Below are positions 5,990 to 46,450 of a DNA stretch of 64,000 bases, piece by piece. Source of the stretch: Argopecten irradians (lineage: Eukaryota > Mollusca > Bivalvia > Pectinida > Pectinidae); the NCBI RefSeq assembly GCF_041381155.1, contig NC_091144.1, positions 34,697,262 through 34,761,261 on the forward strand. Reading direction: 5' to 3'. Position 1 is the stretch's first letter. The number at the start of each line of letters is the position of its first letter. A model generated the notes under the pieces. The model made no database searches. It saw only the letters and a program-made list of their open reading frames with translations, and was not told where the DNA came from. Position numbers and translations under genes: made by a program.

Positions 5990-7722
5990 AATTCTGTACA
6001 TACTTTATGAATACAGTTATTGATTGTAATATCACCTCAGGTTGTCAATTAGCCTTGAAATCATAAAATAGATCGATATTTTTCCAATATCTATCCAGTT
6101 CATTTTTAAAACAATTTAAGTTCTTAGCACAAACAACATTCTCTGGTAAGTTGTTCCACACCGCTGCAGTACGTAGTGAAAAACTGTTGTTTTCTCTTTA
6201 CAGTGCTACATTGTTGAGGGTATACTTTTAAAGAATTTCCTCTATTTTCGGACCGCGACGAAACATCTTTCCACATCTTCAAAAATCCCATGGCTTCACG
6301 ATCGTACATTCCGTTGGTTATATTGTAAATTTCTATCATATCTCCTCGCTGTCTCCTGAACGCTAATGTTGGTAACTGTAGATATTTCAGTATGTCTATG
6401 TATGAAAGGTTTTTAATTTCAGCGACCAGCTTTGTTGCCCTTCTTTGTACTCCTTCGATTTTTTCGATGTATTTCGCTTTGTACGGAAACTAGATAGCAC
6501 ATGCGAAATCAGGATGAGTTCTCACTTATGATTTATATAATAATTGAAAGGTTTCTTTGTCCAAATTTATAATGCTCTTCTTATTATTGCCATCATCATA
6601 TTTGCTCTTTTGATTTATGGTTTTTCTAATTCGAGACTGCTATCGATCATTACTCCTAAGTCTTTTTCCACTTGTGATTTCTTTAGAGTTGTATCAGCAA
6701 GGTAGTACGTGCAATCGTTAACACTTGTCCTTCCTAAGTGCATGTGTACACATTTCCCAGGATGCAATTTCAAGAGCCATGTATCACATCATGCTACCAT
6801 ATTATGGAGATCTTCTTGTAGAATGGTTTAATCATTTTCTTCAGTGATAACTCTGAATATTTTCGTGTCATCCGCGAACAGATATGTCTCAGAGTGCATA
6901 GTATCCGGGAGGTCATTTATGTATACAACAAACAATATCGGACCTATTACAGACCCTTGTGGAACTCCAGATGTGACGGGTCTCCAAGCCGAATTATTTC
7001 CATTAATTACAACGGGCTGCTTCCTATCGTTTAAGAGGTCCTCTATCCATTTAACGACAGTGTGATGTATTCCATATGATTTTAGTTTTTTAAGTAATCT
7101 TTTGTGTGGTACGGTATCAAACGCCTTCTGAAAATCGGTATAGATACAATCAATAGAATTTCCATTATCTAGTGCTCTGGTCCATTGGTCTAGAACTGTA
7201 ACGAGTTGAAGAGTTGTTGATCTTCCCGATATAAAACCATATTGCTTGTTACTGAACAAGGAGTTGGCTTTCATATGATTTACCAAGTGTTGCCGAACAA
7301 GCGTTTCCATTATTTTGCACACAACTGACGTAAGACTGACGGGCCTGTAATTTCCAGCGAGTGATTTGTTCCCTTTTTTGTAGATTGCACATACATGCGC
7401 CTCTTTCCATCCTATTGGTACCATTCCCGTTTCTTTAGACTGATTATATAGTATTGTTAATGACAGTGCAATTGTATTTGCTAATTCCTTGAGAAGTCGT
7501 GGGTGTACTCCGTCTGGTCCCGGGAATTTATTAACATTGCGATTTAATAATGCTTTCTGTGTTTCTTCATTTGTAAATATCAAGTTTCCCATCTCTGTTC
7601 TGATACTCTTGGCTAATTCACACTCTAATTTCTTACGTAAAAACAAAATTACTAACATAAGCAAATATCGATGGCCTAAGTTGAGGTTACAATACCAAAC
7701 AAATGCAAGATTTTCTGCGTAA
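5990..7722 (-). pseudogene. Decayed non-LTR retrotransposon (CR1/Jockey-type RT), 5'-truncated
   Basis: The longest intact stretch (7664-6828, 278 codons) is a reverse transcriptase domain. Motifs in order are [29 protein letters not shown], the catalytic [31 protein letters not shown] and the active-site FADD. Downstream the thumb and C-terminal region is recognisable but broken by stops and frameshifts: GKCVHMHLGR, EKDLGVMID, IEGVQRRATKLV, and a GDMIEIYNITNGMYD segment inside an intact 71-codon piece at 6339-6124. No endonuclease or ORF1 is attached, so the copy is truncated at its 5' end, as is usual for LINE insertions. By motif pattern it belongs to the CR1/Jockey group. The exact clade and the 3' end are uncertain. 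Confidence 0.9.
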
Positions 7723-8383
7723 ACTATGTTAGCAGTGAAGATTCATTTCGCTGTTTTGTCGTCTTGCGCAATGATAGTCAACTAAAGCTCGGTAAATACA
7801 AAATGTAGGTTCCTATAGTCTCGAGAGAGAGGTCGACATTTTAAAATCCTTCTATTTCTTCAGTGGATGGGTGGTGTACGTTTTGAACTGGTCTGGAATT
7901 TTACGGTCACTTTAGTAGGATCCTTCCTAGCAAACGCCTGATTGGTCTTGTTTCGTGTGTCATTTCTTTACTACATAGGATTTTTTTTATTTATTTATTT
8001 TTTTATTTTTTTTTTATTTTTTAGTATTAAATCAAATGAGGCACATGTTCATAAAGATATATATTTTTAGTCCTTTCAGTAATAAACGTCACTAAAACCA
8101 CTTTATTTATCGCTTATATTGAGAAAATAATATCCCTCTATCACTGTAGATGGACACAGTTATAGTAAATTTACAAATAGGAATTGTTCCACTCAAAAGC
8201 ATGCTTCTACATTGATGTATGCATAAATGCTAATCATCACACGTAACACAGGCAGGATAAGTCTATGTTGCCATTGTTTATATTGGATTTGTCATTGTTG
8301 AATGCACATTGGTAGAGAAACCCGATCTCATATACAAAGGCAAACAATCTGGTTTATATTAAAAATACATTTATTAACTAAGA
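7723..8383. other. Non-coding AT-rich stretch
   Basis: T-rich low-complexity tract at about 7980-8025. Otherwise I recognise no gene or repeat between the two LINE copies. Confidence 0.5.
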
Positions 8384-8855: not shown

Positions 8856-11800
8856 CTAAACATTTTCCCGGCGCTTAAATGCTAAGTGTAAATATTTGCC
8901 AAGATTATGAAGTTCTTCGACATTATTCACGGATAATAATTGAACAAGTTTAAAAACACTAGATTTTCGCAAGTAGTATTGTTTAATATATTTTTTCCGA
9001 ATATCTGAATAAAATGGACATCTTAATATAAAATGAAACTCGTCTTCCACTTCGGTTTTGTTACAAAAAGTACATGTTCTATTTTCTCTCGGAGTGTTGA
9101 TATATCTTCCGCTTTCAATTTTTAGATTATGTGATGACATTCTTATTCTAGAAATACACTTCTTATATCGTTGTTCAATAGGTTTCTTAAGATGATACTG
9201 TAGATCAAAATTGTCTACTAAATGCTGATATAAAAAGCCCCTAGAGGAATTACTGATATCACTTGTCAGGTCTTGAAAATATATAAGATAAAATTTGTTT
9301 TCAATCATCTTGTATATTGTTTTCCCATCTAAATAACTATTATAAAGGTATCCTAAGCCTAACCTATCTAATTCTGATTTTATATTTACAATCCAATTGT
9401 CGTTGCTAGACTGTCTATTTTCGTAACAGGCTTTCAGAATGCAGTTTTCAGTGTTTTTGACTTTAACCCAATATTTCAAAATTTTTAATTTTCTTTTATT
9501 TTGTAATGATAATCTTCCTAGTTCACAATACACCATATCATGACAAGTCTTTTTACCTACACCTAAAATATTTTGCAAAAGTTCGAGTGTACCCTCTCGA
9601 CATCTTGTGCCTTGTGAAATTCCCATATTTCACTAGCATAGCCTAAAACACTGGCAACGTATGTATCAAAAACTGAGCACAATGTCTCTGCATTGAAATA
9701 ATTATTTTTCATTTTATTCATGATTCTGAAATAAGCCTTCCTTCCCTTTTCGGCTACATGCTTTTGTGTTTTATTAAATTTACCATTGAAATTAAACAGC
9801 ATTCCAAGGTAATTAAATTCATTTACAATTTCGATTTCGTTATTGTTGTAAAACCATTTCTCATTTTCTCTAACATGACCACCATTTCTAAAAATCATAA
9901 TTTTCGTTTTTTGAATATTAAGTGTAAGCTTCCATTTATCATTGTACTTCTGCAATGCATCTAACAATGATCGCAGGGCACTTGGCGATTCGGCTAACAA
10001 AACAGAATCATCCGCGTACATTAGTAAAAATATAGTAATCATGCGTAATTCAATTGATGGACAGTTTTCATTTATGAAGTTAATTTCACAATCATTTACA
10101 AAAAGACTGTACAAAATTGGTGACAATATTTCGCCTTGAAAGAGTCCGATTCTATTAGGGAAATAATCTGAAACATGACCTTCGTATCTAACACATGATT
10201 TGACATTATCATACAGCGATTTTATAATTTTTAGTAGTTTTCCTTGTATTCCCTGTTTAATTAATTTGCTCCAAAGGTGACTTCTATCAATCAAATCGAA
10301 AGCTTTTTTATAATCTACAAAACAGCAATACAGACGATTTTTATTTTTTAAAGCTCTATTAATTAATGATTGGAGAACAAAGATTGCATCCACTGTTGAA
10401 CAACCTTCTTTAAAACCGAACTGTGCGTCAGTAATGACGTTATTTTCTTTATCCCAATTTAAAAGTCGTCTATTTAAAATAGATGTAAATAGTTTACCCA
10501 TACAGCTAACCAACGTGATACCTCTATAGTTACATGTTTTATTGACATCGCCATTTTTGTAAATAGGTATTATATTACCACGTGACCACATCTCTGGGAA
10601 AAATCCAGAGTCATATATTTTTGTGAATAGGTTTGTTATATGAGGAATGAGAATGTCCTCAAAGTCTAAGAAAAGTTCATTTAAAATACCATCTTCCCCA
10701 CAGCTTTTATTCCGATTGATATTTCGAATAGCGATGTGGACTTCGTCTTCTGTAATCGGTTTATCCAATTCGTCGAAGACAGTGGATTCTACGTCATCGC
10801 CTAAGCGACCTTGGTTAACAATGCCATCGTTACCCCCTCCTAACATTTTAAAATGTTCCACAAAATCTTCCATATTGATATTTGACCGAGGTATTTGACT
10901 AGGCCCTTTTGAAAAATACTTATAAAAATGTTTCGGGTTAGATTTTCTTAAAGTTTCCATCATGTTACCTTCTTGAAGTTTGTATTTCCTTTTAAGTCTA
11001 CATTCTAATTTCTTATATCGTTTTTTCTTATCAATAAGTGTTGAGTGATTTTCAATCGATTTACATTTATTATAATCTTTTAAAGCGTTTTTGTATTCGA
11101 TGTAGTTCTTTTTACATTGATCTGAAAACCAGGGTTTGTCTTCTTTATCATTTCTGTATTTCCTTTGCCCATCATTTGGCAAAACTTTTACAGATTTTAC
11201 GTCACAATTTGGCAAGACGACTTCACTAATCATACCAGAAAAGATGTCAATACAGTTATCAACATCCTCTTTAGAGTTAAAAGACATATTACAAACTTCA
11301 TGTAAATTTGCTACTTAACAAACCATCTGCTATAACGTGATTATTTTCAATGTTCCATTTGATATTTCTGAAAACTTTCCCAGAATAGGGTTTAACATTA
11401 TCTTTTGCAACAGTATCTTTACCAACTGAAAGACTGCAATCAATCTTAAAAGAGATTGGAGAATGATCTGACAAAGTATTAAATTCACCTGAGGTAAACG
11501 ATCGTATGGACGACATACATCCACAATCTACTAGTAGGTAATCAATTAGACTTGCTCCATTAGTGGTAAAAAAATGTAAAATTTCCTTGTTTATCATCCT
11601 GATGGCGGCCATTTACAATGCGCATGCCCGCAGACTTACATAAGGCGATCAGTTTTCTACCAAATGAGTTTATAGTTTTGTCCATATTGTTACGCTCTTC
11701 TATATCATTATCATTATCGTAGTTCAAATTGTTTGTATTTTCTAACCTACCTAATCCGTCATTAACAATATAATCTGTTCGCAAACCCGTTCGGGCGTTA

Positions 11801-12249
11801 AGATCACCCATAACAAAAACGTTACCATTTGTTTTGTAACTCGCTATAGACTCTTCAAGTTGATGGAATAGATCTATTTCCCGATTCTGATAAAAAACAC
11901 TGTTTTCTGGAGGGAAGTAGCAAAAACATAGGTAAAATGGCTCAGGTAAGGCTTTGAATTTTAACCAAAAAATACAATCATTCAATTTTTCGACAATCTG
12001 TATGTTTGGACAATATTTGATTTTATAGAAAATAACCACACCGCCTCCTTTACCCGTGGTTCTTGGAAAAATATGAGAAAAATAACCAGGTAATGAGATG
12101 TCATCATTGCTGGAAATCCAGCATTCAGATAAACAAATAATATCATGCTTATACACAATTTTAAGAAAATCATTATCTTTCAATTTGTAACTGAGTCCTT
12201 TACCAATGTTCCATGAAAGGATTGATAACTCATCACTCTCCTCTGGATC
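8856..12249 (-). pseudogene. LINE ORF2: endonuclease-reverse transcriptase, three frameshifts
   Basis: About 1130 codons. The N-terminus is an APE-like endonuclease, starting with the ILSWNIGKG strand just after the ORF1 stop. It carries ICLSECW, GGGVVIFYK, the catalytic MGDLNARTG (near 11803) and the terminal SDHSPISF (near 11458). The RT domain follows (11287-9563) with YRGITLVSC, FGFKEGCSTVDAI, VDYKKAFD, GEILSPILYSLFVND, YADDSVLLAES as active site, and FNYLGMLF. The C-terminus (9626-8856) has a CTFC...H...RCPF Cys/His cluster typical of many LINE tails. Frameshifts are single-base changes: an extra base in the A-run 11568-11574, one near 11300, and a missing base near 9566-9576. All could be real decay, and two lie in homopolymers where sequencing error is possible. 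The reading frame enters directly from ORF1 with one TAG between them and no ATG. Confidence 0.92.
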
Positions 12250-14450
12250 CTATCTGTTGTCTTGTTGTCCGTGTGTGTGACGCCGTTGGTGCCATGGCCT
12301 TTGATTTCCTCTGTCAATGTTTTGCTCCGGGTATGTTGCATGGTTATGATTCTGGTGACTATGCAATACTTTCCTAGGCGAAACATGGCCATTCTGTCTG
12401 TCCGATGCCACATGCCGATTGTTTGAGGGAAGGGGTTGCTTACTTCCATTTCCGGTGGAAGTAGTGGGCCTGTCGTTTCCAGATCTGTTTGTTGTTGTGT
12501 ATGTCTTGTTAAGTTGTGAGTAATTGGTGCTGAGTCCTTCGTGGCCATTTTCGGGCGGATGATGTTCAATGTACTGTCTACCATTGATGTATAGCCTATC
12601 CCGGACTAGCTTTGCGTCGTTGCCGGCCTGCTTATTATGTTTGAGTACCGGGTACAATTTTTTCCTCCTTTCCTCAATTTCACCAGGATACTGTTCATGG
12701 ATACCAAAACTCGTGCCTTTGAGCCGAAATGACTGGCTTTTCACATACTGTAGGTCCTGTTGGTATATGAACCTGGCCACTATTGGTCGCGGTTTCCCAT
12801 TTGCACTTCTGCCAAATCTATGTACGTTAGCGAACTCGATTCTTTCCTGTATTCCAAGTTCAACGTAGATAAAGTCTCTGAGGAGAGACATGGTATTTTC
12901 ATTACGAGATTCACCAGCTAACCCTGTAAATACTAGGTTGTATTTCATGGACCTACATTGAAGATCTAAAATGGTTTGCTTCATTTCATCCCGTTCCCTT
13001 TTGAATGCGTCCACGTCCTTACCAAGGTTATAAATGGTTGTCTCGTGATCTCTTTAAAGACGTCGCGCACAATGTTCGGTCACTTTTATGTAACGTTATT
13101 GAATGTAAAAGACGTCATTATCTTATAACATGACGAGCGCAATTGACGTCATTTCCGACATTCGGCAAACCTGCAAGACAAAGAAAAAACGCAATTTTTC
13201 GAATACTTTTTTGAATTTTCAGTAGAGATTTCGCACACGTATATTTGAGCAAAAACGTATTTTTTTATTCTGAATAGAAAACATACTCCCTAATATAAAG
13301 TCATTTTTCAACGTCGTGAACTTGCGTGACAGAACAGTCAATCTAAAAATTTCATTTTGTGTCATTTCTGCAAGACAAAGGTTTTGTTCGATAAATAAAG
13401 TAGAACGACGTCGCAGTCTATATTTTCTGACGTGTTATTAAAATAGAAGAAAAACGTATTTTTGTATTAACAATTCATGTATCTATCTCATGTATTAGTA
13501 CCGTTTTGTACTGTGTATATTTGTGTTTTTTCACTTTTTTATCTTTTCTCTTCGGATCTGTCGATCGGCAAGTCTACAAACAAAGTCCACCATTTTGAAG
13601 TATGACGTCACATTTCATTATAACGAAATGACATCATGATAGTTCGTTTTCGGGGAATCTCTTTGTCAAATTTTACCGCCATGTGGTGTTCAGTATGACC
13701 ACAGTGACACTTTAACTGAAACCGCATACAGGTGCGTGTTACATCTGTCGCGCCAAAAAACGTCATATTCTCAACAAAAACACATCAATAGAAAAATAAA
13801 TATTATAAATATTTTGATAAAAAGCCTCCCGTAATTGAATAAATATATCCTTTCTGTTTTTCAATTAAAAAAAATAGTATTGCGCTTATATTATTTTACT
13901 GTTCAACGCTTTTTCCAATGAAATTCCGGCGTGACGTAAAAGTGACCGAACATTGTGCGTTATGTATAATCGTTTCTAAGAGTTCAGTATTATCGCCTCC
14001 ATTGGTGCTTATCTCCTCCAGCTTGCCTGACACGAAATTACATGTTGCTTCAAACTCATTGCACCTTTGCTCAGTGTCTCTTACTCTCTTTTCCACTTCA
14101 GTAACTCTAGTTGTCAAACGAGAAAGATGTTGTTCTATTGCATCCAACTTATTTAACTTTTGAATTTTTTCAAGTATGAAGTCAAGTTTTCGACTTGTTT
14201 CTGCGTGTTGATTCTCGCTTAGAATGACATCCGCACTTTTTGTTTCAATGTCTTTCCCACATGCTGCCCTTGCTGGGTTAGGTGTTGACGTTACCGGAGT
14301 GTTCGTTGGCTTAGGCGGGCTTCCATACAGCACACCACTTACAGCATTTAATATACTGCTTACTGTACTTGTCGAGTTATTACTACTCCCAGTAGAATCA
14401 CCGTCGTCTGTATCTTTCTTCTTTCGCTTCTTACTTTTACTCTTTGTCAT
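12250..14450 (-). pseudogene. LINE ORF1 (coiled coil + RRM-like), split by a MITE
   Basis: The N-terminal part (14450 to about 13960) is basic (MTKSKSKKRKKK), then Ser/Thr-rich, then a heptad-patterned coiled coil (IEQHLSRLTTRVTEVEKRV). The C-terminal part (about 13050 to 12250) resumes with coiled coil, then CRSMKYNLVFTGL and ANVHRFGR...RPIVARF, which resemble the RNA-binding domain of L1-type ORF1 proteins, and a His/Gln-rich tail. The two halves join logically across the inserted element (13061-13959). The insertion stops the N-terminal frame 21 codons inside the element. ORF1 proteins of this kind bind LINE RNA as trimers. The ORF1 stop is a TAG at 12252-12250. Confidence 0.85.
13061..13959. 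mobile_element. ~900-bp MITE nested in LINE ORF1
   Basis: Inverted termini CGCACAATGTTCGGTCACTT lie at 13066 onward (plus) and 13959 backward (minus), matching over about 30 bp with two mismatches. The interior has no long open frame and is rich in GACGTC palindromes (near 13059, 13109, 13134, 13407, 13604). The element separates two parts of one ORF1, so it inserted after the LINE did. I find no convincing target duplication. The superfamily is unknown. Confidence 0.8.
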
Positions 14451-15539: not shown

Positions 15540-15765
15540 TAAAGGTTACACCCTTGTGCACACGGAGTGCACGAGGTTTAGACTACAGGTAGACACGGAG
15601 TGCACAAGGTTTAGACTACAGGTAGACACGGAGTGCACAAGATTTAGACTACAGGTAGACACGGAGTGCACAAGATTTAGACTACAGGTAGACACGGAGT
15701 GCACTACGTGTGAACACGGTGTCCACTACAGGTGGACATCGTGTCCAGGTACATTGAGACCTAGA
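15540..15765 (+). repeat. Left terminal array of 33-bp units
   Basis: About four full copies of a 33-bp unit (…ACGGAGTGCACAAG…TTTAGACTACAG…), followed by a variant block with GTGAACACGGTGTCCAC. Because 33 is a multiple of three, it gives a spurious repetitive open frame (TECTRFRLQVD repeats). Confidence 0.9.
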
Positions 15766-18484: not shown

Positions 18485-18750
18485 GTCTGTCTGTGGTCTG
18501 GATGTAGTGGATATTTTACCTGGACACGATGTCCACCTGTAGTGGACACCGTGTTCACACGTAGTGCACTCCGTGTCTACCTGTAGTCTAAATCTTGTGC
18601 ACTCCGTGTCTACCTGTAGTCTAAACCTCGTGCACTCCGTGTCTACCTGTAGTCTAAACCTCGTGCACTCCGTGTCTACCTGTAGTCTAAACCTCGTGCA
18701 CTCCGTGTCCACTCGTAGTTCACACCGTGTGCACAATGTGTAACCTTTAG
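18485..18750 (-). repeat. Right terminal array of 33-bp units (inverted)
   Basis: Inverted counterpart of the array at 15540-15765, with about four full units. It has the same inner palindromic block at 18520-18560 and the same outer terminus. Confidence 0.9.
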
Positions 18751-22425: not shown

Positions 22426-22831
22426 TAATTACAAAAATACAAACAACAAAATAATATTTTAAACTACTATCACAAGAAAGCTGATTTTATCATTCAGAAT
22501 CACTCAGAAGTACATTTGTACTCTAAATCAGCTTGTGATGCATGGAGTAGAGTTTTACCTATTTCACCATTTTCCTGAAGTATACCAACATTTCACATCT
22601 AACAACAAAATTCTAATGATTAAATTTCAAAACAAAATGTCAAAATCATCAGATCTTTTCCATATATAAAAATAAATGCTTTTACAAAAATTGTTAACTT
22701 TTCAACTTAAAAATCAATCAGATAAAAACATGTTTCTAGTACTTTACACAGTAACTCACAATCTCAGAAAAGAACTTCCTGTCCACAACAGCAAAATTAA
22801 ACAACTTTGTAGTAGTAACACTATATCAACA

Positions 22832-24180: not shown

Positions 24181-24344
24181 TTATACAAATTCCATGATGG
24201 TTTTCTTTATGATGCTAATGCACTCCTGCATTTGGTTCTCAGTCATGATGAGTGGCGGGGCAAATCTGATGATGTCGCCGTGGGTGGGCTTGGCGAGGAG
24301 GCCGTTGTCACGGAGACGCAAGCATACATCCATAGCATCATGCT
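24181..24344 (-). CDS. OAT: OAT coding exon 8 (C-terminus, stop)
   Basis: Encodes the terminal segment with [19 protein letters not shown] and IIRFAPPL, highly conserved in OAT, ending KKTIMEFV and TAA. The acceptor is TCCAG before 24344. Only this acceptor restores the frame from exon 7 (phase 1). Confidence 0.95.
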
Positions 24345-27300
24345 CTGGATTAAAAAATCATCTCAATTAAAAAATAATTGAAAATGTTTTTCAATTAAGA
24401 ATCAGAAAAAATCAAAATTCTAGAAGAATAATCATATGTAGTTCTATGTAAAATTGAAATCTTAAGCATTTTTAAAAAGAACATGTTGCTCTGGTAATAT
24501 CGAAATCTTGGGCATGTTTGAAAATGCAAACTTAAAATTAATTTTCTGATTATATGCATTTCAGAATCTATTGTAATAATTACTGGATCTCTTATACAGT
24601 AACACCTGTCTTAGTGACCACCTCTGTATAAAGACCACCTTCTTAATAAGACCACTTTTCTAGGGTTCCAAATGACCAATAATTTCAACAAAATTCAACC
24701 TGTGCACTTGGCTATAAAGACCATTTCCCTCAATTCCTTGTGTGGTCTTTATAGACAAGCTTGACTGCAATTTAATTTTAGATTTTGTTTATGTTCTATA
24801 AATAGCCACAGTCATTTAAGGATGTACAAAAATTTGACTTTCTAGCTTGATCAATAAATACTAATATCGTAAGCCAAATTTTCTTTCATGGCTGTTAAAT
24901 TTCGCAATTTCAATTTCAAATCATATTTGCGAAGAGCAAAATTCATGGATTTTAAATTGAAGATCGATTCCTATCAATATGAATTTTGTAGATATTAATT
25001 AATAAATAAACTTATATGAATTTACTTGGATTGTGAATTTCGGGAAAATATTTCGCACGCAAAAGAAAGTTCTGTTTACAGTACACTGACTTTAAGGCAT
25101 AACTTACTCTCATTGATTACAATGGCGTTAAGCAGGCCCTTTCCTCTCACAGTCTTCACTAGATCCTTAGGGAGCTCCGCCAGTTCCTTACGGAGAATAT
25201 TCCCCAGGTGATCAGCTCTCTCCGCCAGCTTCTCCTCCTCCAACACCTACAATATGTAACAACATCAATCATAATTCAAGATGGCCACCTTCAATTTCAT
25301 ATGATATCTGATTATGCTTGAAATTTTTCAAATTCCTTTTGTTTTTCGAACAGTCATACAATACAGATTTATGCCACACAATCCGCCAGATGTCCATTGG
25401 TTTTGTCCATGTAATATTTTTGTATGTCATTATTGTAATATGACCAGGAGCGATTTACATTGATTAGAAATTCTTCATTATGGATATTAACAATAAAAAT
25501 GTACATTTGATGCAAGATTTTCCGAAATATATGCTGTTGTAGTAAAGTGATAAAATGTATCTTAAATTTGTGTTCATTTCATATGAAATTTTATGAAACT
25601 GAAGTGATTGAGCCAGACTCACCTTCCACTAGACACGGCACGGATGTGAAAAGTTCAGAAGTCACCTGCCTGATCAAGTGGGGTTTCTCTGGGGCGTTAA
25701 TAATAATATTTATCTGAACTTGACGTATACATAATATGTCCACAACAAAATAATCAGTAGATCCAGACTAACCTGAAGGGCAGCTATCGCTACTTTACAT
25801 GCGAGAGGGTTACCCCCGTACGTGGAGCCATGTTCTCCCGGCTGTATCGTTAACATCACTGGATCATCAGCCAAAATAGCCGATACCTACAAAGAGGAAA
25901 TATTGCCAACTTATAAAATTTTGAATTAAAAGCATCAATTTAGATTTTTTTAAATATTCATTTATTGCTAAACATTTGTTTGATAAGTATTTCCGATCAT
26001 AGTATGATGGGCCGAATATTCATAGACAAGAGCTTTCTGAAAAATGTTTTGGAATTGAAATCATCCTCAATATTCCAGAGGCAAAACTGAAGACTCTGTG
26101 TGCGACAACAGATTGGACTAGTATTTTGGTCCTTAAAGATAACAGTACATTGTTTAGCTATGAAATTGGGTTTTTTCTCTCTACAAATCTTCAAACAAAG
26201 TAAGAATAAACTTAAGTCTCTGTAGGCCTGGATGTTCTTAGTTTTTTCCCTAAAAATGCCTTCTACTACTGTGCTACTAGGACATAGTCCAGATACAAAA
26301 ACAGAGATAGTAATCTGTGGAAAATCGGGGATGAGTCAGGGTGTGAACATTTTACCCTGACGATTGCTATGGAAATTTTTTAGAGTTATCAGGCCTTGCA
26401 GTTGGGTATCAATTGTGATCTCATTAGATTGTGAATGAAAATTCCATTGTTTTCTTTTAAAACAAGAGATCCCAGAGGGATCTTGGCGCATACCAAAGAA
26501 TGATCTATGTCTGATAATGGAAAGAGTGATCTTTTTCCTGCTTTTAAACTTTTTCAAATACACTACATATGAAATTTGAGACAGATCGCTATAGTACTTT
26601 CTAAGAAATAGCGGTAACAAACTTCAACAATTAAACCTAAGATGGGAACCGGTAGACCATCTTGTTGACCGATCAGTCCCAAAAGGCATTATGCACAACT
26701 AGGGTACAAGGGGAGCCTACGCATGGAATTTGAGAGAGATCCCTTCAGTACTTTCTGAGAAATAGCGGTAACTATCAAAATCCAAGATGGCGGCCGTTCA
26801 GCCATCTTGTTGACCAATCAGTTATAAAATGTAATTTGCACAAGAAGGGCCTAAGGGGAACCTACATATGAAATTTGAGACAGATGCCCTCAGTACTTTC
26901 TGAGAAATAGCGATAACAAACTTTAACTATCAAAATTGTAGGTGACTGCCAGGCGGCCATCTTGTCGACCGATCGGTCCCAAAACGCAATATGCACAACA
27001 AGGGCCCTAGGGGAACCTACATATGAAATTTAAGAACGATCCCTTCAGTACTTCCTGAGAAATAGCGATACAACTTTTAACTATCAAAATCCAAGATGGA
27101 CGCCTTATGGCCATCTTGTTGACTGATCGATCCTAAAATGTAATATGCACAACTAGGGCCCTAGGGGAACCTACATGTGAAATTTGAAAAAAATCCCTGC
27201 AGTACTTTTTGAGAAATAGTGGTAACAAACTTTAACTATCAAAATCCAAGATGGCTGCCTGTCGGCCATCTTGTTGACCGATCGGTCCCAAAATCCAATA

Positions 27301-30300
27301 TGCACAACTAGGGTCCTAGGGGAACTTACATATGAAATTAAAGAAAGATCCATTCAGATGTTAATGAGAAATAGCGGTAACAAACTTTAACTATCAAAAT
27401 CCAAGATGATCGCCTGTTGGCCAACTTGTTGACCGATTGGTCCCAAAATGCAATATGTACAACTAAGGTCCTAGGGGAAATAGCAGGAACAAGCATTGTT
27501 AACGGACGGACGGACAGAAGGATGGACGGAAGGAAGGATGGATGGACGGACGACGGACCACAGACAAAGAGGATTTGAATAGCCTACCATCTGATTATGG
27601 TGGGCTAAAATATAACATTATGCTGATGTATGAACATATGATATAACAATTAATACCTTCTAAGAAGGACAGCTACTTTAAGATATGTAAATACAAAATC
27701 ATTCAAGGGCAGATAACTCTGTAATATGTAGATACAGAATCATTCAAGGGCAGATACTCTATAATATGTAAATACAGAATCATGCAAGGAGAGATAACTC
27801 TTTGATATACTTACAGGCAGGACTCCTCCTGACAAAGCTTTACCAAGCAACACAATGTCAGGGCGGACATTTTCATGGTCCACACACAGGCGTCTATAAA
27901 TAACAGCACAAGCATCTATAAATAACAACCTAGCATCTATAGATATAAATAACAACACAGACATCTATAAATAACAACCTAGCATCTATAGATATAAATA
28001 ACAACACAGATATCTATAAATAACAACACAGGCGTCTATAAATAACAACACAGGCATCTTTAAATAACAACACAGATATCTATTAATAACAACACAGATA
28101 TCTATTAATAACACACAGACATATATAAATAATAACACAAGCGTCCATAAATAACAACACAGACATCTATAAATAACAACACAAGCGTCCATAAATAACA
28201 ACACAGACATCTATAAATAATAACACAGACATCTATAAATAACAACACAGACATCTATAAATAACAACACAGACATCTATAAATAACAACACAGACATCT
28301 ATAAATAACAACACAGACATCTATAAATAACAACCTAGCATCTATAGATATAAATAACAACACAGACATCTATAAATAACAACCTAGCATCTATAGATAT
28401 AAATAACAACACAGACATCTATAAATAACAACCTAGCATCTATAGATATAAATAACAACACAGACATCTATAAATAACAACCTAGCATCTATAGATATAA
28501 ATAACAACACAGACATCTATAAATAACAACCTAGCATCTATAGATATAAATAACAACACAGATATCTATAAATAACAACACAGGCGTCTATAAATAACAA
28601 CACAGGCATCTTTAAATAACAACACAGATATCTATTAATAACACACAGACATATATAAATAATAACACAAGCGTCCATAAATAACAACACAGACATCTAT
28701 AAATAACAACACAAGCGTCCATAAATAACAACACAGACATCTTTAAATAACAACACAGACATCTATAAATAACAACAGAGACATCTATAAATAATAACAC
28801 AAGCGTCCATAAATAACAACACAGACATCTATAAATAACAACACAGACATCTATAAATAATAACACAAGCGTCCATAAATAACAACACAGACATCTATAA
28901 ATAATAACAAAGGCATCTATAAATAACAACACAGACATCTATAAACAATAACACAGACATCTATAAATAACAACACAGACCTCTATAAATAACAACACAG
29001 ACCTCTATAAATAACAACACAGACATCTATAAATAACAACACAGACCTCTATAAATAACAACACAGACATCTATAAATAACAACACAGACATCTATAAAT
29101 AACGACACAGACATCTATAAATAATAACACAGGCGTCTATAAATAACAACACAGACATCTATAAATAATAACACAAGCGTCCATAAATAACAACACAGAC
29201 ATCTATAAACAATAACACAAGCGTCCATAAATAACAACACAGACATCTATAAATAATAACACAGGCGTCTATAAATGATAACACAGGCGTCTATAAATAA
29301 CAACACAGACATCTATAAACAATAACACAAGCGTCCATAAATAACAACACAGACATCTATAAATAATAACAAAGGCATCTATAAATAACAACACAGGCGT
29401 CTATAAATGATAACACAGGCGTCCATAAATAACAACACAGACATCTATAAATAACAACACAAGCGTCCATAAATAACAACACAGACATCTATAAATAATA
29501 ACAAAGGCATCTATAAATAACAACACAGGCGTTTATAAATGATAACACTAGCGTCTATAAATAATAACACGGACGTCTATAAATAACAACACTGACATCT
29601 ATAAATAATAACACAGACGTCTAGAAATATAAATAAAAACAGGTCGTCTATAAATAACAACACAGATTTTTTTTTTATTTTCATTTCAAAACAAGATAAG
29701 AAAGATTAATATTTTCAGATTTAAAATTGAACTGAAATTCTTATCAATATAAATGATATAGATATTAATTTGGCTCGCAGAAGAAAGTCAGTTTACTGTT
29801 TCCTCAGTCAATGATAGTAAATTGTTTTTACTTTCCCGTCCTTGCGAGCCCAGTCTGAACCTCGTCAGCAATCCAGAGGACGTTATATTTGTCGCAGAGT
29901 TGTCTGACCTTGGTGAGGTAGCCGTCGTCGGGGACGACCACACCAGCCTCTCCTTGGATGGGCTCCACCATGTAAGCACATGTGTTGGGATTCTGTAGTT
30001 CTTTCTATCAAATAGAAAACATTTTCTTACATCAATAGTCTCATGGTAACATGGTCTATCTATCAATCTCTGTAGATGTCTAAAGATGCTCCATTGCCGA
30101 CAGAGCATAAATGATATTCATCATTTGAACAATACTTGGTGTTTGATCGTGTATATATATGTCTAATTAACACAAAAATAATGCAAATTAACTGATTTTG
30201 CCTTTGGTGCATGAGCAATCAGTACTTCATTCCATATAGGATATAGTGCCACAGAATTTTTTCGGGATGCAATTAATTGTTTTTAACATTTTCAACTTGA

Positions 30301-33300
30301 AGTAAAATTAGAAGCTCAAACTTTTCAATGGCGGTAATGGTGTAAATTAAGTAACTTTTGTAACTGAAGAAAAATACTACATCGTCTGCTCCTGTTTTTA
30401 ATAGTGAAAAAATACCATTTTTCAGCGGTGGAGCATCTTTAGAGTAAATAAAATAACAAAATTTTAATTCTCTTTCAAAATCAAGTCATAGAAAACATAG
30501 AGAAACAGTTCTTTACTTACACCAATTTATTAAAACATAGTTATTATGTATGCTCACCTCCAATGCGTCTATATCATTGTAGGGAACAAGCCCGAACCCT
30601 GGCATAAAAGGGCCATACCCGGCATAGCTTGATGGATCTGTGGAACTGGATATGGCTGCCAAGGTGCGACCCCAGAAGTTGCCGTCAGCAAATATAATCC
30701 TTGCCTGGTCAGCAGGCACCTTCTTGACCTGGTAGGCCCATTTCCTGGCCAGTTTACAGGCCGTCTCTCCAGCCTCCACACCTACATCAAGTACGCTAGA
30801 GGTCTATTCCGTCTTTGCATATCATAAAATTATCTCCCGTTCAGGCAGGTACCTAATCCCCCTTCCCAAAGATGTTTCTCATTAAATTTTGTCACAATCC
30901 ATTCTGTACATTATGACTAGTAGTGATTTAAAGGAATTCTCTCTACTCACTCTATTCCTATGTAAAATCTTATCCCCTCAACTCAAAGATGTTTCTGACC
31001 AAATTTGATTAAAATCCATTATGAACTTTACAAACAATACCTGTATTCATGGGCAGTACTTTATCGTAACCAAAAAGACTGTTCATGTACTCCTCATATT
31101 CGCCAAGGACGTTGGTGTAGAATGCACGGGACGTCAGTGTAAGGATATCCGCCTGATCTTTGAGTGCCTTGATGATCTTCGGGTGACAGTGGCCCTGATT
31201 CACTGCACTGTAGGCACTGAGGAAGTCGTAGTACTGATTACCCTCTACATCCCATACATGTACACCTGGAATACACAATATCATACACACCTGTAATACA
31301 CAATATCATACACACCTGTAATATACAATATCATACACACATGTAATATACAAAATCATACACACATGTAATACACAATATCATACACACCTGTAATACA
31401 CAATATCATACACACCTGTAATACACAATATCATACACACCTGTAATACACAATATCATACACACCTGTAATATACAAAATCATACACACATGTAATATA
31501 CAAAATCATACACACCTGTAATACACAATGTCACACACACCTGTAATACACAATGTCATACACACCTGTAATACACAATATCATACACACCTCTAATACA
31601 CAATTTCATAAACACCTGTTATACACAATGTCATACCCACATGTAAAATACAATGTCATACACACCTGTACTACACAATGTCACACACATATGTAATATA
31701 CAGTGTCATACACCCCTGTAATACACAATGACATACATACCTGTAACACACAATATCATACCCACATAGAAAACACAATGTCATACACACATGTAATATA
31801 CAATGCCATACACACATGTAATACACACTGCATGCACACACAAAGTACACACTGCATACACACATTGATATGCAATGTTATATACATGTGATTACCTTCT
31901 CAACAACACAGTTATTTTTCAGTTGTTACTAATCTTCTCAGCGGCACAGGGCCTTGTGCTGTTACTATGACTAATACCTTTCCATTGAAGCAGGGCCCTG
32001 TGTTGTAAGTTACCTTCTCCATGACAAAGGGTTTTAAGTTGTTTCTTACCTTCTCTACCTTCTCTGCGACACAGGGCCTTGTGCTGTTATTTACCTTCTC
32101 CATGACACAGGGCCTTGTGTTGTCACTTACCTTTTCCGCGACACAGGGCCATGTGTTGTCACTTAACTTCTCCATAACACAGGGCTTTGTGTTGTTTCTT
32201 ATCTTCTCCATGACACAGGGTCTTTTGTTGTTACTGACCTTTTCCATGACACAGGGCCTTGTGTTGTAACCCACCTTCTCCACGACACAGGGCCGTGTGT
32301 TGTAACCCACCTTCTCCACACAGGGCCATGTGTTGTAACCCACCTTTCACATGACACAGCGTCTTGTGTTGTTTCTTACCTCCTCTATGACACAGGACAT
32401 TGTGTTGTCACTTACCTTCTCTAAAACACAGGGCTTTGTGTTGTTTCGTACCTTCTCTGTGACACAGGGCTTTGTGTATTCACTTACCTTATCCACGACA
32501 CAGGGCCTTATGTGGTTACTTCTCCATGACATAGGGCTTTGTGCTGTTATTTACCTTTTTCATGATACAAGGTCTTGTGTTGACTTGTTTCTTACCTTTT
32601 CCATGACACAGAGCCTTGTGTTGTTACCCATCTTTTCCACATCACAGGGCCTTGTGTTGTTTCTTACCTTCTCTATGACACAGGGCTTTGTGTTGTTTCT
32701 TACCTTCTCCAAGACACAGGGCCATGACACAGGGCCTTGTGTTGTAACCCACCTTCTCCACGACACAGGGCAGTGTGTTGTAGCCTACCTTTTCCATGAC
32801 ACAGGGCCTTGTGTTGTTTCTTACCTTCTCTACGACACAGGGCTTTGTGTTTTTTCTTACCTTCTCCACGACACTGGGCCTTGTGTTGTTACTTATTTTC
32901 TCTCTGACACAGGGTCTGTGTTGTTACCCATCTTTTCCACGACACAGGGCCTTGTGTTGTTTCTTACCTTCTCTACGACACAGGGCTTTGTGTTGTTTCT
33001 TACCTTCTACACGACACAGGGCCTTGTGTTGTTTCTTACCTTCTCTATGACACATGGCTTTGTGTTGTTTTTTACCTTCTCTGCGACACAGGGCTTTGAG
33101 TTGTTTTTACCTTCTCTATGACACAGGGCTTTGTGTTGTTTCTTACCTTCTACACCACACAGGGCCTTGTATTGTCACTTACCTTCTCTAAGATACAGGG
33201 CTTTGTGTTGTTTCTTACCTTCTCCATGACATAGAGCCTTGTGTTGTCACTTAACTTCTCCATGACACAGGGCCTTGTATTGTTACTTACCTTCTTTACG

Positions 33301-33702
33301 ACACAGGGCCTTGTGTTGTTACTTACCTTCTCCATGACACAGAGTCTTGTGTTGTCACTGACCTTTTCCATGACACAGGGCCTTGTGTTTTCACATACCT
33401 TCTCCATGACACAGGGTCTTGTGTTGTCACTGACCTTTTCCATGACACAGGGCCTTGTGTTTTCACTTACGTTCTCCATGACACAGGGTCTTGTGTTGTT
33501 ACTTACCTTCTGCACGACACAAGGCCACAGGAATCGGACCATAATTATGGGCACCATATTTCTGTTCCTTTGCAAATACTGCCTCCGACTTCTCTCCGAT
33601 TTTCTTGTTTGCTGTGTGGGTGGCCGCACTTGTTGACATTGTGGCTCTTCGGGCGGCACTTCTCATTGCCATGGTTACGGACTTGCTGATCACACTCATC
33701 AT
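24181..33702 (-). CDS. OAT: Ornithine aminotransferase, mitochondrial, 8 coding exons
   Basis: PLP enzyme that transfers the delta-amino group of ornithine to 2-oxoglutarate, giving glutamate semialdehyde and glutamate in the mitochondrial matrix. Coding exons (minus): 33702-33507, 31265-31041, 30781-30558, 30004-29832, 27893-27815, 25886-25773, 25246-25108, 24344-24181. They total 1314 nt, giving 437 aa plus TAA; human OAT is 439 aa. All junctions are GT/AG and in phase. The N-terminus is Arg/Ser/Thr-rich, as in mitochondrial presequences, followed by [14 protein letters not shown]. Key residues: F176/W177 (NFWGRT, stacks on PLP), E229, D262 and Q265 (ADEVQTG), K291 (GKALSGG, Schiff-base lysine), T321 (GSTYGGNPL). 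Each is one less than the human numbering. An AG before 33712 suggests a 5'UTR exon farther upstream that I cannot find. Introns carry splice-site-derived minisatellites and MITEs. Confidence 0.97.
24590..24770. repeat. Interspersed repeat in OAT intron 7
   Basis: A segment with 'cagtaacacctgtcttagtgacc', 'tctagggttccaaatgaccaat' and 'tgtggtctttatagacaagcttgactg'. The two ends are loosely inverted around 'gtctttatag/ctataaagac'. It looks like a common molluscan interspersed repeat. The family name is not known to me and there is only one copy here. Confidence 0.4.
25108..25246 (-). CDS. OAT: OAT coding exon 7
   Basis: Encodes [20 protein letters not shown] followed by the [14 protein letters not shown] segment. 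Donor is GAGA|GTAAGT and acceptor GTAG|GTGTTG. Exon length 139 carries phase 0 to phase 1. Confidence 0.95.
25628..25680 (-). other. Possible cryptic/poison exon in OAT intron 6
   Basis: On the minus strand a short segment of about 46 nt is bounded by an acceptor-like GGCAG|GTGACT and a strong donor GGAAG|GTGAGT. Inclusion between coding exons 6 and 7 would shift the frame because 46 is not a multiple of three, and it has no counterpart in OAT proteins. It may be only a chance pair of sites. Confidence 0.25.
25773..25886 (-). CDS. OAT: OAT coding exon 6
   Basis: Encodes [20 protein letters not shown] and [18 protein letters not shown], the region with Thr321 that contacts PLP from the partner subunit in this family. 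114 nt, phase 0 at both ends. Confidence 0.96.
26462..27610. repeat. ~150-bp hairpin-unit tandem array, OAT intron 5
   Basis: Starts AACAAGAGATCCCAGAGGGA, then has about six units of roughly 150 bp. Each carries 'catatgaaatttgag', 'ctgagaaatagcggtaac' and an inverted pair CCAAGATGGC...GGCCATCTTG that can fold into a hairpin. It ends in a GGACGGACGGA-type run and a closing block to about 27610. It is a dispersed tandem element, clearly related in architecture to 45049-46450. Non-coding. Confidence 0.85.
27690..27814 (-). repeat. Three-copy ~40-bp repeat abutting OAT donor 5
   Basis: Three units of about 40 bp ('tcattcaagggcagataactctgtaatatg...atacagaa'). The unit nearest the exon overlaps the 5' splice site of intron 5 (CCT|GTAAGTATATC at 27814). 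The units also resemble the terminus of MITE family C (AACTCTGTAATATGCAAA), so a MITE end may have seeded them. Confidence 0.65.
27815..27893 (-). CDS. OAT: OAT coding exon 5 (catalytic lysine)
   Basis: Encodes [20 protein letters not shown] and SGGVLP. Lys291 in LLGKALSGG is the PLP Schiff-base lysine. 79 nt takes phase 2 to phase 0. The first ten exon bases and the preceding acceptor are the template of the array at 27894-29668. Confidence 0.96.
27894..29668 (-). repeat. Acceptor-derived minisatellite, OAT intron 4 (~80 × 22 bp)
   Basis: The unit on the minus strand is TTATTTATAG|ATGTCTGTGTTG or the variant ...TATAG|ACGCCTGTGTTG. The true intron 4 acceptor reads GTTATTTATAG|ACGCCTGTGTG, so each unit contains the 3' splice site plus the first roughly ten exon bases. 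A higher-order unit of about 49 bp (with CCTAGCATCTATAGATAT) is repeated six times around 28320-28560. The array fills over 90% of the intron and ends directly on exon 5. Open frames in it ([14 protein letters not shown] repeats) are by-products. Confidence 0.93.
29832..30004 (-). CDS. OAT: OAT coding exon 4
   Basis: Encodes [20 protein letters not shown] and onward to [16 protein letters not shown]. It contains E229, D262 and Q265 of the cofactor site. Donor AAA|GTAAAA, acceptor GATAG|AAAG. 173 nt, phase 0 to 2. Confidence 0.96.
30083..30439 (-). mobile_element. MITE family A, copy 3, in OAT intron 3
   Basis: TA-flanked (30081-30082 and 30440-30441). Ends are AAGATGCTCCATTGCCGA and CAGCGGTGGAGCATCTT. 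It is in opposite orientation to the 22064 copy and highly similar to it, so probably a fairly recent insertion. Confidence 0.88.
30558..30781 (-). CDS. OAT: OAT coding exon 3
   Basis: Encodes [20 protein letters not shown] and [20 protein letters not shown], then [19 protein letters not shown]. It holds F176 and W177 of the PLP pocket. Donor GAG|GTGAGC, acceptor GTAG|GTGTGG. 224 nt, phase 1 to 0. Confidence 0.96.
30806..30860 (+). mobile_element. Terminal fragment of MITE family C beside OAT exon 3
   Basis: ATTCCGTCTTTGCATATCAT, then 'ttatctcccgttcaggcaggta', match the left end of the 22832-23018 element. It lies only about 25 bp from the exon 3 acceptor. Confidence 0.65.
31041..31265 (-). 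CDS. OAT: OAT coding exon 2
   Basis: Encodes [20 protein letters not shown], the [11 protein letters not shown] segment and [20 protein letters not shown] to VLPMNTG. Donor CAG|GTATTG, acceptor TCCAG|GTGTAC. 225 nt keeps phase 1. The acceptor is the last member of the array at 31266-31870. Confidence 0.96.
31266..31870 (-). repeat. Acceptor-derived minisatellite, OAT intron 1 (~24 × 25 bp)
   Basis: The minus-strand unit is ATTGTGTATTACAG|GTGTGTATGAT. The true acceptor is ATTGTGTATTCCAG|GTGTACATG. Each unit thus carries a full acceptor (and an AGGT proto-splice site) plus the first exon bases. The array runs directly into exon 2. Units far from the exon are more diverged. Confidence 0.92.
31905..33506 (-). 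repeat. Donor-derived minisatellite, OAT intron 1 (~44 × 36 bp)
   Basis: The minus-strand unit contains CCCTGTGTCATGGAGAAG|GT AAGT AACAACACAAGG. The true exon 1 end reads GCCTTGTGTCGTGCAGAAG|GTAAGTAACAACAC, so each unit repeats the last 19 or so exon bases plus the first 17 or so intron bases, including a consensus donor. The period of 36 gives long spurious frames on both strands ([12 protein letters not shown] and [12 protein letters not shown] repeats). Together with the acceptor array it makes up nearly the whole 2241-bp intron. Confidence 0.94.
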
Positions 33703-45048: not shown

Positions 45049-46450
45049 GAACAAGAGGCCCAAGGGTCTTAACGGTCGTCTGACTTCCTTGGCAATAGTC
45101 CTATAGGAAATTAATCAGATATGGTGTCGTGGTAGCCATCTTGGATTTGGGTTCAACCAGAGATGTAACAACTGAACACTTTATCAATGTCATAACAGGA
45201 TCATTTCAGACAGAAATGTGTTTTCAAAATGGCAGCTGTGGCGGCCATCTTGGATTTCGAATCAAACCGAAAAATAACAACAACTTGTCGGGACCATGTC
45301 AGGATCATTTCAAGTCAGTTTCAGCTAAATTGCACAGGCACAGCTTGAGAAGAAATTCAAAATACATTTTCAATATGGCGGCTGTAGCGGTCATTTTTAA
45401 TTTCGGAACCATCCGAAAAATAACAACACTTTATCAGGACCATGTCAGGATCATTTCAAGTAAGTTTCCGCTAAATCGCATCAGTAGAACTGGAGAGAAG
45501 AAGTTCAAAATGCGTTTTCAAGATGGTGGCTGTGGCGGCAATTTAATATTTCGAATCCACCCGAAAAATCGTAACAATTTGTCGGGAACATGTCAGGATT
45601 ATGTCATGCAAGTTTCAGCTAAATTGCACTAGTATAGTTTGAGAAGAAGTTCAAAATGTGTTTTCAAGATGGCGGCTGGTTCGGCCATCTTGGATTTCGG
45701 ATCGACCCGAAAATTAAGAACAATTTGTCGGGAACTTGTCAGGATCATTCATCCAAGTTTCAGCTAAATCGCAGTGGTACAATCTGAAAAGAAGGTCAAA
45801 ATGTTTTATTCAAGATGGATGCTGTTTCGGCCATCTCGGATTCGGATCGACCCGAAAAAAATAACAACACTTTGTCGGGACCATGTCAGGTTCATTTTAT
45901 GCAAGTTTCAACTAAATTACATTGGTATAATTTGATAAGAAGTTCAAACTGAGTTTTTAAGATGGCGGCTGTGGCGATTATCTTCGATTTGGGACCGACC
46001 CCAAAAAAACCACTTTGTCGGGACCATATCAGGATCATTTCAGCCAACTTTCAGCTAAAGCGCACCAGTAGAACTTGAGAAGAAGTTCAAAATAGGGTTT
46101 CAAGAAGGCGGCTGTAGCGGCCATCTTTTATTTCAGATCAACCCGAAAACAACAATACTTGGTCTGTACCATATCAGACTCATTTCAGGCAAGTTTCAGC
46201 TAAATCGCACCGGTAGAACTTAAAGTTCAAAATGTGTTTTCAAGATGGTGGCTGTAGCGGCCATCTTGGATTTCGGATCGACCCGAAAAATAACAACATT
46301 TGGTCGAGACCATGTCAGGTTCATTTTAAGCAAGTTTCAACTAATTTGAGAAGATGTTCAAAATGTGAAAAGTTAACGCACGGCGTACGGCGAACGACGG
46401 ACGAAACATAATGACTATATGTCATTCTGACTCTTTAAGTCATATGACCT
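45049..46450. repeat. ~147-bp hairpin-unit tandem array
   Basis: Starts AACAAGAGGCCCAAGGGTCT, then has about eight or nine units of roughly 147 bp. Each contains CAAGATGGCGGCTG...GCCATCTTGGATTTC (an inverted pair), 'gacccgaaaaataacaac', 'ttgtcgggaccatgtcaggatcattt' and 'caagtttcagctaaatcgca'. It closes with a CGGCGTACGGCGAACGACGG block. The 167-codon frame in it (45129-45632) reads through repeats and is not a gene. A truncated inverted copy is at 54285-54510. Confidence 0.88.

What the first reader, a model, noticed from the sequence alone, without database searches (positions are those of the whole stretch)
31266..33506. An intron made of its own splice sites: donor array followed by acceptor array in OAT intron 1
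Seen: the 2241-bp intron between OAT coding exons 1 and 2 starts with about 44 copies of a 36-bp unit that reproduces the last 19 or so exon bases plus the consensus donor (AGAAG|GTAAGTAACAACAC). It ends with about 24 copies of a 25-bp unit that reproduces the acceptor plus the first exon bases (GTATTACAG|GTGTGTATG). Only about 40 bp in the middle is neither. Inference: the intron grew outward from both exon edges by repeated duplication of its own junctions, leaving dozens of near-consensus 5' and 3' splice sites in correct order. The spliceosome must choose the outermost pair to make the intact enzyme, or all pairs may be equivalent if exon bases in each unit are tolerated. I know of no described class of 'splice-junction minisatellites'.
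Basis: partly seen in the sequence, partly recalled or inferred. Interest (0 to 1): 0.9.

Follow-up and report, generated by a model that had tools for sequence, protein, structure and literature searches.

The report
Splice-site repeats fill a scallop intron
In a bay-scallop metabolic gene, one intron consists almost entirely of repeated copies of its own two edges, a kind of repeat already described in lancelets, and similar repeats at other scallop genes offer natural tests of how cells choose the right cutting site among dozens of look-alikes.

Summary
Intron 1 of the bay-scallop OAT gene (31266-33506, minus strand) starts with 44 intronic copies of a 36-bp unit spanning the donor junction and ends with about 25 copies of a 25-bp unit ending at the acceptor. 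About 60 bp between them fits neither unit well.

The kind is known: lancelet "mirages", and a human minisatellite supplying many splice donors. New here: a mollusc, arrays at both ends of one intron, tens of copies, and recurrence in this genome. Of 9 donor-type arrays examined, 7 span an exon-like edge. Of 15 acceptor-type arrays, 2 span one and 2 more stop at one. None of 40 surveyed P450 exon fragments has one.

Most likely the arrays are neutral: tandem duplication caught a junction, selection kept the exon-edge copy, and spare copies piled up in the intron. Each of 106 intact OAT decoy sites, tried singly, would truncate the enzyme; the database protein fits the outermost pair. In 3 of 7 other donor arrays the outermost donor is weaker than most decoys, so position may matter more than strength. 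No RNA data were seen.

The parts
24181..33702 (-). Ornithine aminotransferase (OAT) gene, coding part: 8 exons, 7 introns
   Evidence: tblastn; exact model translates to P0001, 437 aa
33507..33702 (-). Coding exon 1; its last ~20 bases are the exonic part of the donor-array unit
31882..33528 (-). Donor array: 45 copies of a 36-bp unit (exon edge + GTAAGTAACAACAC); the outermost copy is the real junction
   Evidence: TRF (31975-33526); unit alignment; 36 of 45 keep GT
33501..33512 (-). Real donor of intron 1, CAGAAG|GTAAGT
31855..31917 (-). Middle of intron 1, weak match to either unit (overlaps the innermost rows of both arrays)
31262..31878 (-). Acceptor array 1: ~25 copies of a 25-bp unit (ATATTGTGTATTACAG|GTGTGTATG)
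31041..31265 (-). Coding exon 2
27884..29665 (-). Acceptor array 2 in intron 4: ~79 copies of a 22-bp unit (TGTTATTTATAG|A[CT]G[CT]CTGTGT); the last copy is the real acceptor and the start of exon 5
27815..27893 (-). Coding exon 5

Best explanation
These are mirage-type splice-junction minisatellites. Step 1 (inferred): a short tandem duplication, of the kind that seeds minisatellites, happened to straddle a splice junction. Step 2 (inferred from anatomy): later copies accumulated on the intron side only, because the exon-edge copy is held by selection on the protein. Step 3 (supported by column conservation): intronic copies drift freely. Step 4 (annotation-level support only): the spliceosome uses the copy nearest the exon, so mature mRNA is normal; use of an inner copy would truncate the enzyme and would be lost to decay or re-splicing. 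Selection of the outer copy is by position or exon definition at least as much as by donor strength. This happened three times in OAT and repeatedly elsewhere in the genome.
For: Units span the junction: donor 17/20 exon bases, intron-4 acceptor 10/10, acceptor 1 only 4/4 or 7/9. 40 of 44 donor units keep the base that exon 1 has changed relative to its nearest relatives. Donor columns -3..+6 in the decoys are no better conserved than the rest (0.856 vs 0.875; rank 24 of 36 cyclic windows), so decoy sites show no sign of selection. Every intact decoy, tried singly, truncates: 35 of 35 GT donors, 14 of 14 and 57 of 57 AG acceptors. The database protein P0001 equals the outermost splice product. 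Generality: 7 of 9 donor-word arrays examined span an exon-like open stretch with 10-23 matched positions, best supported for 5-oxoprolinase-like and sepiapterin reductase; acceptor arrays span exon edges in a P450 and a TMEM131-like gene. In sepiapterin reductase the annotated P0121 is consistent with the outermost donor GTTAGT although 6 of 8 GT decoys in the fetched stretch pair better with U1; for L041 it is 70 of 71 and for L042 10 of 16.
Against: No RNA reads were seen; junction usage rests on database protein models. Acceptor array 1 has very short exon homology. Enrichment at splice sites was not established: match counts favour the donor word over its reversed control (5571 vs 795, 1176 vs 333, 8834 vs 1171) but long arrays dominate them, array counts on C1 and C2 are only 5 vs 2, and the acceptor word goes the other way (67 vs 613). 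0 of 40 P450 exon fragments carry one. Copy-number instability was not seen in the one array with a second haplotype (about 3 vs 3 copies). Three of the seven donor-array exons have no homology support. In OAT itself, and in L044, no decoy pairs better with U1 than the real donor, so strength alone could suffice there.
Confidence: 0.75

Rival explanations
1. The arrays are a regulatory device: decoy donors and acceptors divert part of the transcript into unproductive splicing and so tune OAT output.
For: All 106 intact decoys, tried singly, lead to premature stops, which is what unproductive splicing needs; many decoys are near-consensus.
Against: Donor columns are not conserved above the rest of the unit; 9 of 44 decoys have lost GT; 10 of 24 counted acceptor-1 units have lost the G of AG.
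Confidence: 0.1
2. Inner copies take part in stepwise removal: inner pairs are cut first and the remaining outer donor and acceptor are re-spliced to the correct product (nested or recursive splicing).
For: Any inner excision in intron 1 leaves an outer donor and an outer acceptor in correct order (sequence); many acceptor-1 units read AG|GT, the form of a ratchet point (the comparison is from general knowledge).
Against: No RNA evidence. The second 'donor' would be GTGTGT, weak. Not needed to explain the protein.
Confidence: 0.1
3. The intron itself was created by AGGT-type tandem duplication of exon sequence.
For: This is a published route to intron gain (PMC4974935, passages read), and mirages were proposed as raw material for new introns (PMC3087553).
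Against: Donor and acceptor units of intron 1 are unrelated, so two separate events in an existing intron fit better. Intron age in relatives could not be checked.
Confidence: 0.05
4. Assembly artefact.
For: Tandem arrays are hard to assemble; no raw reads were seen.
Against: Units differ from their consensus by 9-13% on average in a patterned way. A second contig carries the macoilin array with about the same copy number. Exact copy numbers could still be wrong.
Confidence: 0.03

Closest known systems
'Mirage' minisatellites of lancelets (Adh3, globins Gb6 and Gb9, troponin C; similar repeats in PGBD5)
   Same: Minisatellite-like tandem duplications of 5' or 3' intron-exon boundaries; many but not all copies carry AG/GT; regular splicing reported undisturbed (PMC3087553, PMC3902484; passages read).
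   Different: Different phylum; far more copies than the 3 and 6 reported for the two Gb6 haplotypes; both ends of one intron; three arrays in one gene. No RT-PCR here.
Human IFI6 (6-16/G1P3) minisatellite
   [quoted passage not shown] details recalled).
   Different: By recollection several copies are used as donors there; here inner copies would truncate the protein. Paper itself not read.
[quoted passage not shown]
   Same: Short tandem duplications supply ready splice sites (PMC4974935, passages read).
   Different: There the duplication makes a new intron; here it lengthens an existing one.
Variable intronic minisatellite of abalone TSSK1-like
   Same: A 27-bp minisatellite in a mollusc intron whose copy number differs among individuals (PMC6905558, passages read).
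   Different: The passages seen do not say that the unit spans a splice junction.

Membership tests
Mirage minisatellite | Tandem repeat unit spans an exon-intron boundary | tested here: met
   Donor array 17/20 exon bases, acceptor array 2 10/10; acceptor array 1 only 4/4 or 7/9
Mirage minisatellite | Many copies retain AG/GT splice signals | tested here: met
   35 of 44 intronic donor copies keep GT; 14 acceptor-1 and 57 acceptor-2 decoys keep AG
Mirage minisatellite | Regular splicing not disturbed (RT-PCR) | not testable with these tools
   Only the database protein P0001, which fits the outermost pair
Mirage minisatellite | Length instability between haplotypes or cells | tested here: inconclusive
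   Among the listed matches OAT exon 2 lies at one place only (list cut); the macoilin array has about 3 copies on both contigs
IFI6-type multiple-donor minisatellite | Several repeat copies are used as functional donors | not testable with these tools
   No RNA; inner donors would truncate OAT in 35 of 35 cases
AGGT tandem-duplication intron gain | Donor and acceptor of the intron come from copies of one duplicated segment | tested here: not met
   Donor and acceptor-1 units are unrelated: 556 of 2000 shuffles align as well

The most novel reading that the evidence does not exclude
Splice-junction minisatellites are a widespread way in which scallop introns grow, by rough extrapolation hundreds of loci, and they show that the 5' splice site in these genes is chosen by position (first transcribed or exon-defined) even against tens of stronger copies immediately downstream.
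Probability: 0.35. Interest if true: 0.8.

Novelty: new member of a known kind. Interest (0 to 1): 0.52.

Why it matters
How a spliceosome picks one donor among many equal ones is an old question, usually studied with a few engineered copies (general knowledge). This genome holds natural arrays of tens of donor or acceptor copies, including three where the presumed real donor pairs worse with U1 than most decoys. The arrays can also preserve older exon edges, and they show one concrete way introns may lengthen from their ends. The same structures were proposed in lancelets as raw material for new introns.

Tried and rejected
Strength rule: in OAT the real donor is the strongest (2 of 35 GT decoys tie, none is stronger), which first suggested that strength selects it. 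The seven other donor arrays do not support this as a general rule: decoys stronger than the real site 70 of 71 (L041), 10 of 16 (L042; many units not scored), 5 of 36 (L043), 0 of 38 (L044), 1 of 11 (L045), 6 of 8 (L088, fetched part only), 0 of 11 (L086, fetched part only). Age gradient: units nearer the exon resemble the true copy more in acceptor 1 (rho -0.78) and weakly in the donor array (-0.33), not in acceptor 2, so no single growth direction is claimed. Enrichment: not claimed; the reversed-word control for the long-gap pattern did not complete by the server. P450 survey: 40 regions hand-chosen from the 100 rows, full-length intronless matches and many clustered genes left out; 0 of 40 have a spanning array (L078 has an array 66 bp upstream of an acceptor, not counted). 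Acceptor arrays: 15 of about 21 clusters fetched, one flank each, judged by eye on about 260 bp: L099 and L105 span an exon edge, L094 and L100 stop at the acceptor with 2 matched exon bases, L101 is unclear, 9 show no exon, and in L104 the array fills the stretch so its flank was not reached. Donor arrays: all 9 distinct arrays in the first listed places (lists cut at about 100 places) were fetched; L039/L040 and L087 are unresolved; L041, L042 and L086 rest on open frame and splice signals alone; L043 (joined pieces 2e-6, just under the cut-off; the exon alone gave no family), L044 (0.0029, under the cut-off) and L099 (5e-5, under the cut-off) are weak. Reversed-word control arrays: 2 of the 8 in the first listed places were read; no exon abuts, one flank is hidden by another array, and an exon-like stretch lies about 230 bp from L092's array. 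Papers: listings showed no mollusc case; passages opened in three listed papers (PMC6905558, PMC12783039, PMC3862624) describe intronic minisatellites in abalone and earthworm or only cite one, and none says that a unit spans a splice junction. Other listed papers were not opened, and subscription papers are not held. The original mirage paper (PMC117041) is not held.
Full report
What it is in. The window lies in contig C11 of an 846-Mb assembly. The best protein match of the gene is ornithine aminotransferase, mitochondrial-like, of Argopecten irradians, the bay scallop, at 100% after rounding. The contig length listed for that protein, 43,197,688, equals the length of C11. The gene is on the minus strand. 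With exon 1 ending at 33507 and the other ends sought within 20 bp of the tblastn matches, one exon chain translates exactly to that 437-aa protein. Its introns are 31266-33506 (2241 bp), 30782-31040, 30005-30557, 27894-29831 (1938 bp), 25887-27814, 25247-25772 and 24345-25107.

The arrays. In transcript order, intron 1 begins with 44 intronic copies of a 36-bp unit AAGGCCCTGTGTCATGGAGAAG|GTAAGTAACAACAC. It ends with about 25 copies of the 25-bp unit ATATTGTGTATTACAG|GTGTGTATG. About 60 bp between them (31855-31917) match either unit only weakly and may be decayed units. Intron 4 is mostly a third array, about 79 copies of a 22-bp unit TGTTATTTATAG|A(C/T)G(C/T)CTGTGT, ending in the real acceptor and the first ten bases of exon 5. 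Units agree with their consensus at 87% (donor), 89% (acceptor 1) and 91% (acceptor 2) on average. Donor and acceptor-1 units are unrelated: 556 of 2000 shuffles align as well.

Exon homology. The last exon-1 bases match the donor unit at 17 of 20 places, and none of 200,000 random strings did as well. The exon-5 start matches a common variant of its unit at 10 of 10 (5 in a million) and the consensus at 8 of 10. The exon-2 start matches only 7 of 9, or 4 of 4 before the first mismatch (p about 0.001 and 0.009). The donor array seems to keep an older exon. Exon 1 ends in codons for ALCRAEG; the nearest relatives Mizuhopecten and Ylistrum, and Patella and Lottia, have Gly in place of Ala, and 40 of 44 units carry G at that base (GGA in 25, AGA in 12). 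Against a simple reading, 8 of the 25 proteins in which the motif was found (39 looked at, the scallop included) also have Ala.

Are the decoy sites maintained? There is no sign of it. Counting 44 of 47 aligned donor rows (partial rows and the exon copy dropped), columns -3 to +6 average 0.856 identity against 0.875 elsewhere, rank 24 of 36 cyclic windows. In acceptor array 1, 10 of 24 counted units (of 27 rows) have lost the G of AG. GT survives in 35 of 44 intronic donors.

What would the decoys do? Each intact decoy, put in place of the real site one at a time, brings in a stop codon: 35 of 35 donors, 14 of 14 acceptors in intron 1 and 57 of 57 in intron 4. With the real donor's GTAAGTAA retained, translation stops after codon 67. 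The database protein therefore fits the outermost pair. That is annotation, not RNA.

The same thing elsewhere in the genome. A search for three AGGTAAGT words 8 to 38 bases apart gave 5571 matches against 795 for the word read backwards; gaps of 8-20 gave 1176 against 333 and 42-72 gave 8834 against 1171. These are matches, not arrays, and long arrays dominate; for gaps of 8-20 the arrays listed on C1 and C2 are 5 against 2. The first listed places of the three donor searches held nine distinct arrays, and I fetched flanks of all nine. Seven continue into an open, exon-like stretch with an upstream acceptor, and the unit shares exon sequence over 10 to 23 positions at 90% identity or better; none of 5000 shuffles did as well in any of the seven. 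One exon is 5-oxoprolinase-like (Hydantoinase_A, E 1.9e-11). One is sepiapterin reductase, matching a solved structure to within a few residues of the array. One lies in a cadherin-repeat gene (neighbouring exon 4.3e-7; joined pieces with this exon 2e-6, just under the cut-off). One is weakly Med14-like (0.0029). Three are supported by open frame and splice signals only. Two arrays stayed unresolved.

For acceptors, the word TTTTGCAG gave 67 matches against 613 for its reverse, so there is no excess. Of 15 array flanks fetched out of about 21 clusters, two arrays span an exon edge: a P450 exon (E 3.6e-12, 23 of 26 exon bases) and a TMEM131-like exon (E 5e-5, under the curated cut-off; 17 of 17). 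Two stop at an acceptor with 2 matched exon bases: a macoilin exon (E 1.1e-21) and an unnamed open frame. One is unclear, nine show no exon by eye, and one flank was not reached. A direct survey of 40 P450 exon fragments found no spanning array. Such arrays are therefore uncommon per junction but recur across the genome.

Position against strength. In OAT the outermost donor is also the strongest by pairing with U1. Elsewhere that varies: for the L041 array 70 of 71 GT decoys pair better than the presumed real GTTAGT, for sepiapterin reductase 6 of 8 in the fetched part, for L042 10 of 16 scored; in the other four arrays few or none do. The annotated scallop sepiapterin reductase reads ..LSNRIK-AAYTDGRV.., which fits use of the outermost, weak donor, and Pecten and Ylistrum continue in a similar way. 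If RNA confirms this, position or exon definition overrides strength here.

Comparison with the known. Passages read from PMC3087553 and PMC3902484 describe 'mirages' in lancelets: minisatellite-like tandem duplications of 5' or 3' exon-intron boundaries that do not disturb splicing and may seed new introns. The scallop arrays meet the structural definition. [quoted passage not shown] Passages of an abalone paper describe a variable intronic minisatellite without saying that it spans a junction (PMC6905558). The scallop case is therefore a new member of a known kind, in a new phylum as far as the listings show, with tens of copies and both ends of one intron taken over.

How it most likely works. 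Tandem duplications arise throughout this repeat-rich genome. When one straddles a junction, the exon-edge copy is kept by selection on the protein, and extra copies can pile up only on the intron side. They drift, and splicing keeps using the exon-edge copy. Shown: anatomy, exon homology (weak for acceptor 1), lack of decoy conservation, truncation by decoys, recurrence. Inferred: the duplication process, the direction of growth and the real splice-site use.

Noticed in passing
window 31882-33528 and 27884-29665: The donor unit (..GTAACAACACAAGGCC) is nearly the reverse complement of the intron-4 acceptor unit (GCCTGTGTTGTTAT..), so introns 1 and 4 of the transcript could pair many times over. 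2 of 1000 single-base shuffles pair as well (6 of 1000 for the variant unit); five pairings were tested, the others unremarkable.
   Followed up: partly
window 15560-15747 and 18521-18734: The same 33-bp minisatellite occurs twice in opposite orientation about 2.8 kb apart, like the repeat-bearing ends of a transposon.
   Followed up: no
window 6124-7742 and 8856-12605 (minus): Long open frames resembling endonuclease and reverse-transcriptase parts of non-LTR retrotransposons (by eye).
   Followed up: no
window 26563-27479 and 45214-46344; also L044: About 150-bp tandem repeats sharing a palindrome-like AAGATGGC..GGCCATCTT motif recur in and outside the window.
   Followed up: no
window 27665-27808, near 22830 and 30800: A dispersed motif (TTTGCATAT..AGTTATCTCCC) recurs; next to the exon-5 donor a related 41-bp tandem array does not include the splice site (by eye).
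   Followed up: no
L039/L040 (G000:C1:2890630-2897590): A roughly 7-kb array of a 41-bp unit; most listed copies carry both an acceptor-like TTCTACTTCCATAG and a donor-like GAG|GTAAGT about nine bases later; flanking exon not resolved.
   Followed up: partly
L086 (G000:C1:493000-495500): A putative 62-bp exon lies between a 39-bp array ending at its acceptor side and a 49-bp array starting at its donor.
   Followed up: partly
P0123 (Mizuhopecten sepiapterin reductase): The annotated protein ends in an unrelated tail right after the junction that carries the array in bay scallop (KIKGGWNYYFYG..); possibly a read-through model.
   Followed up: no
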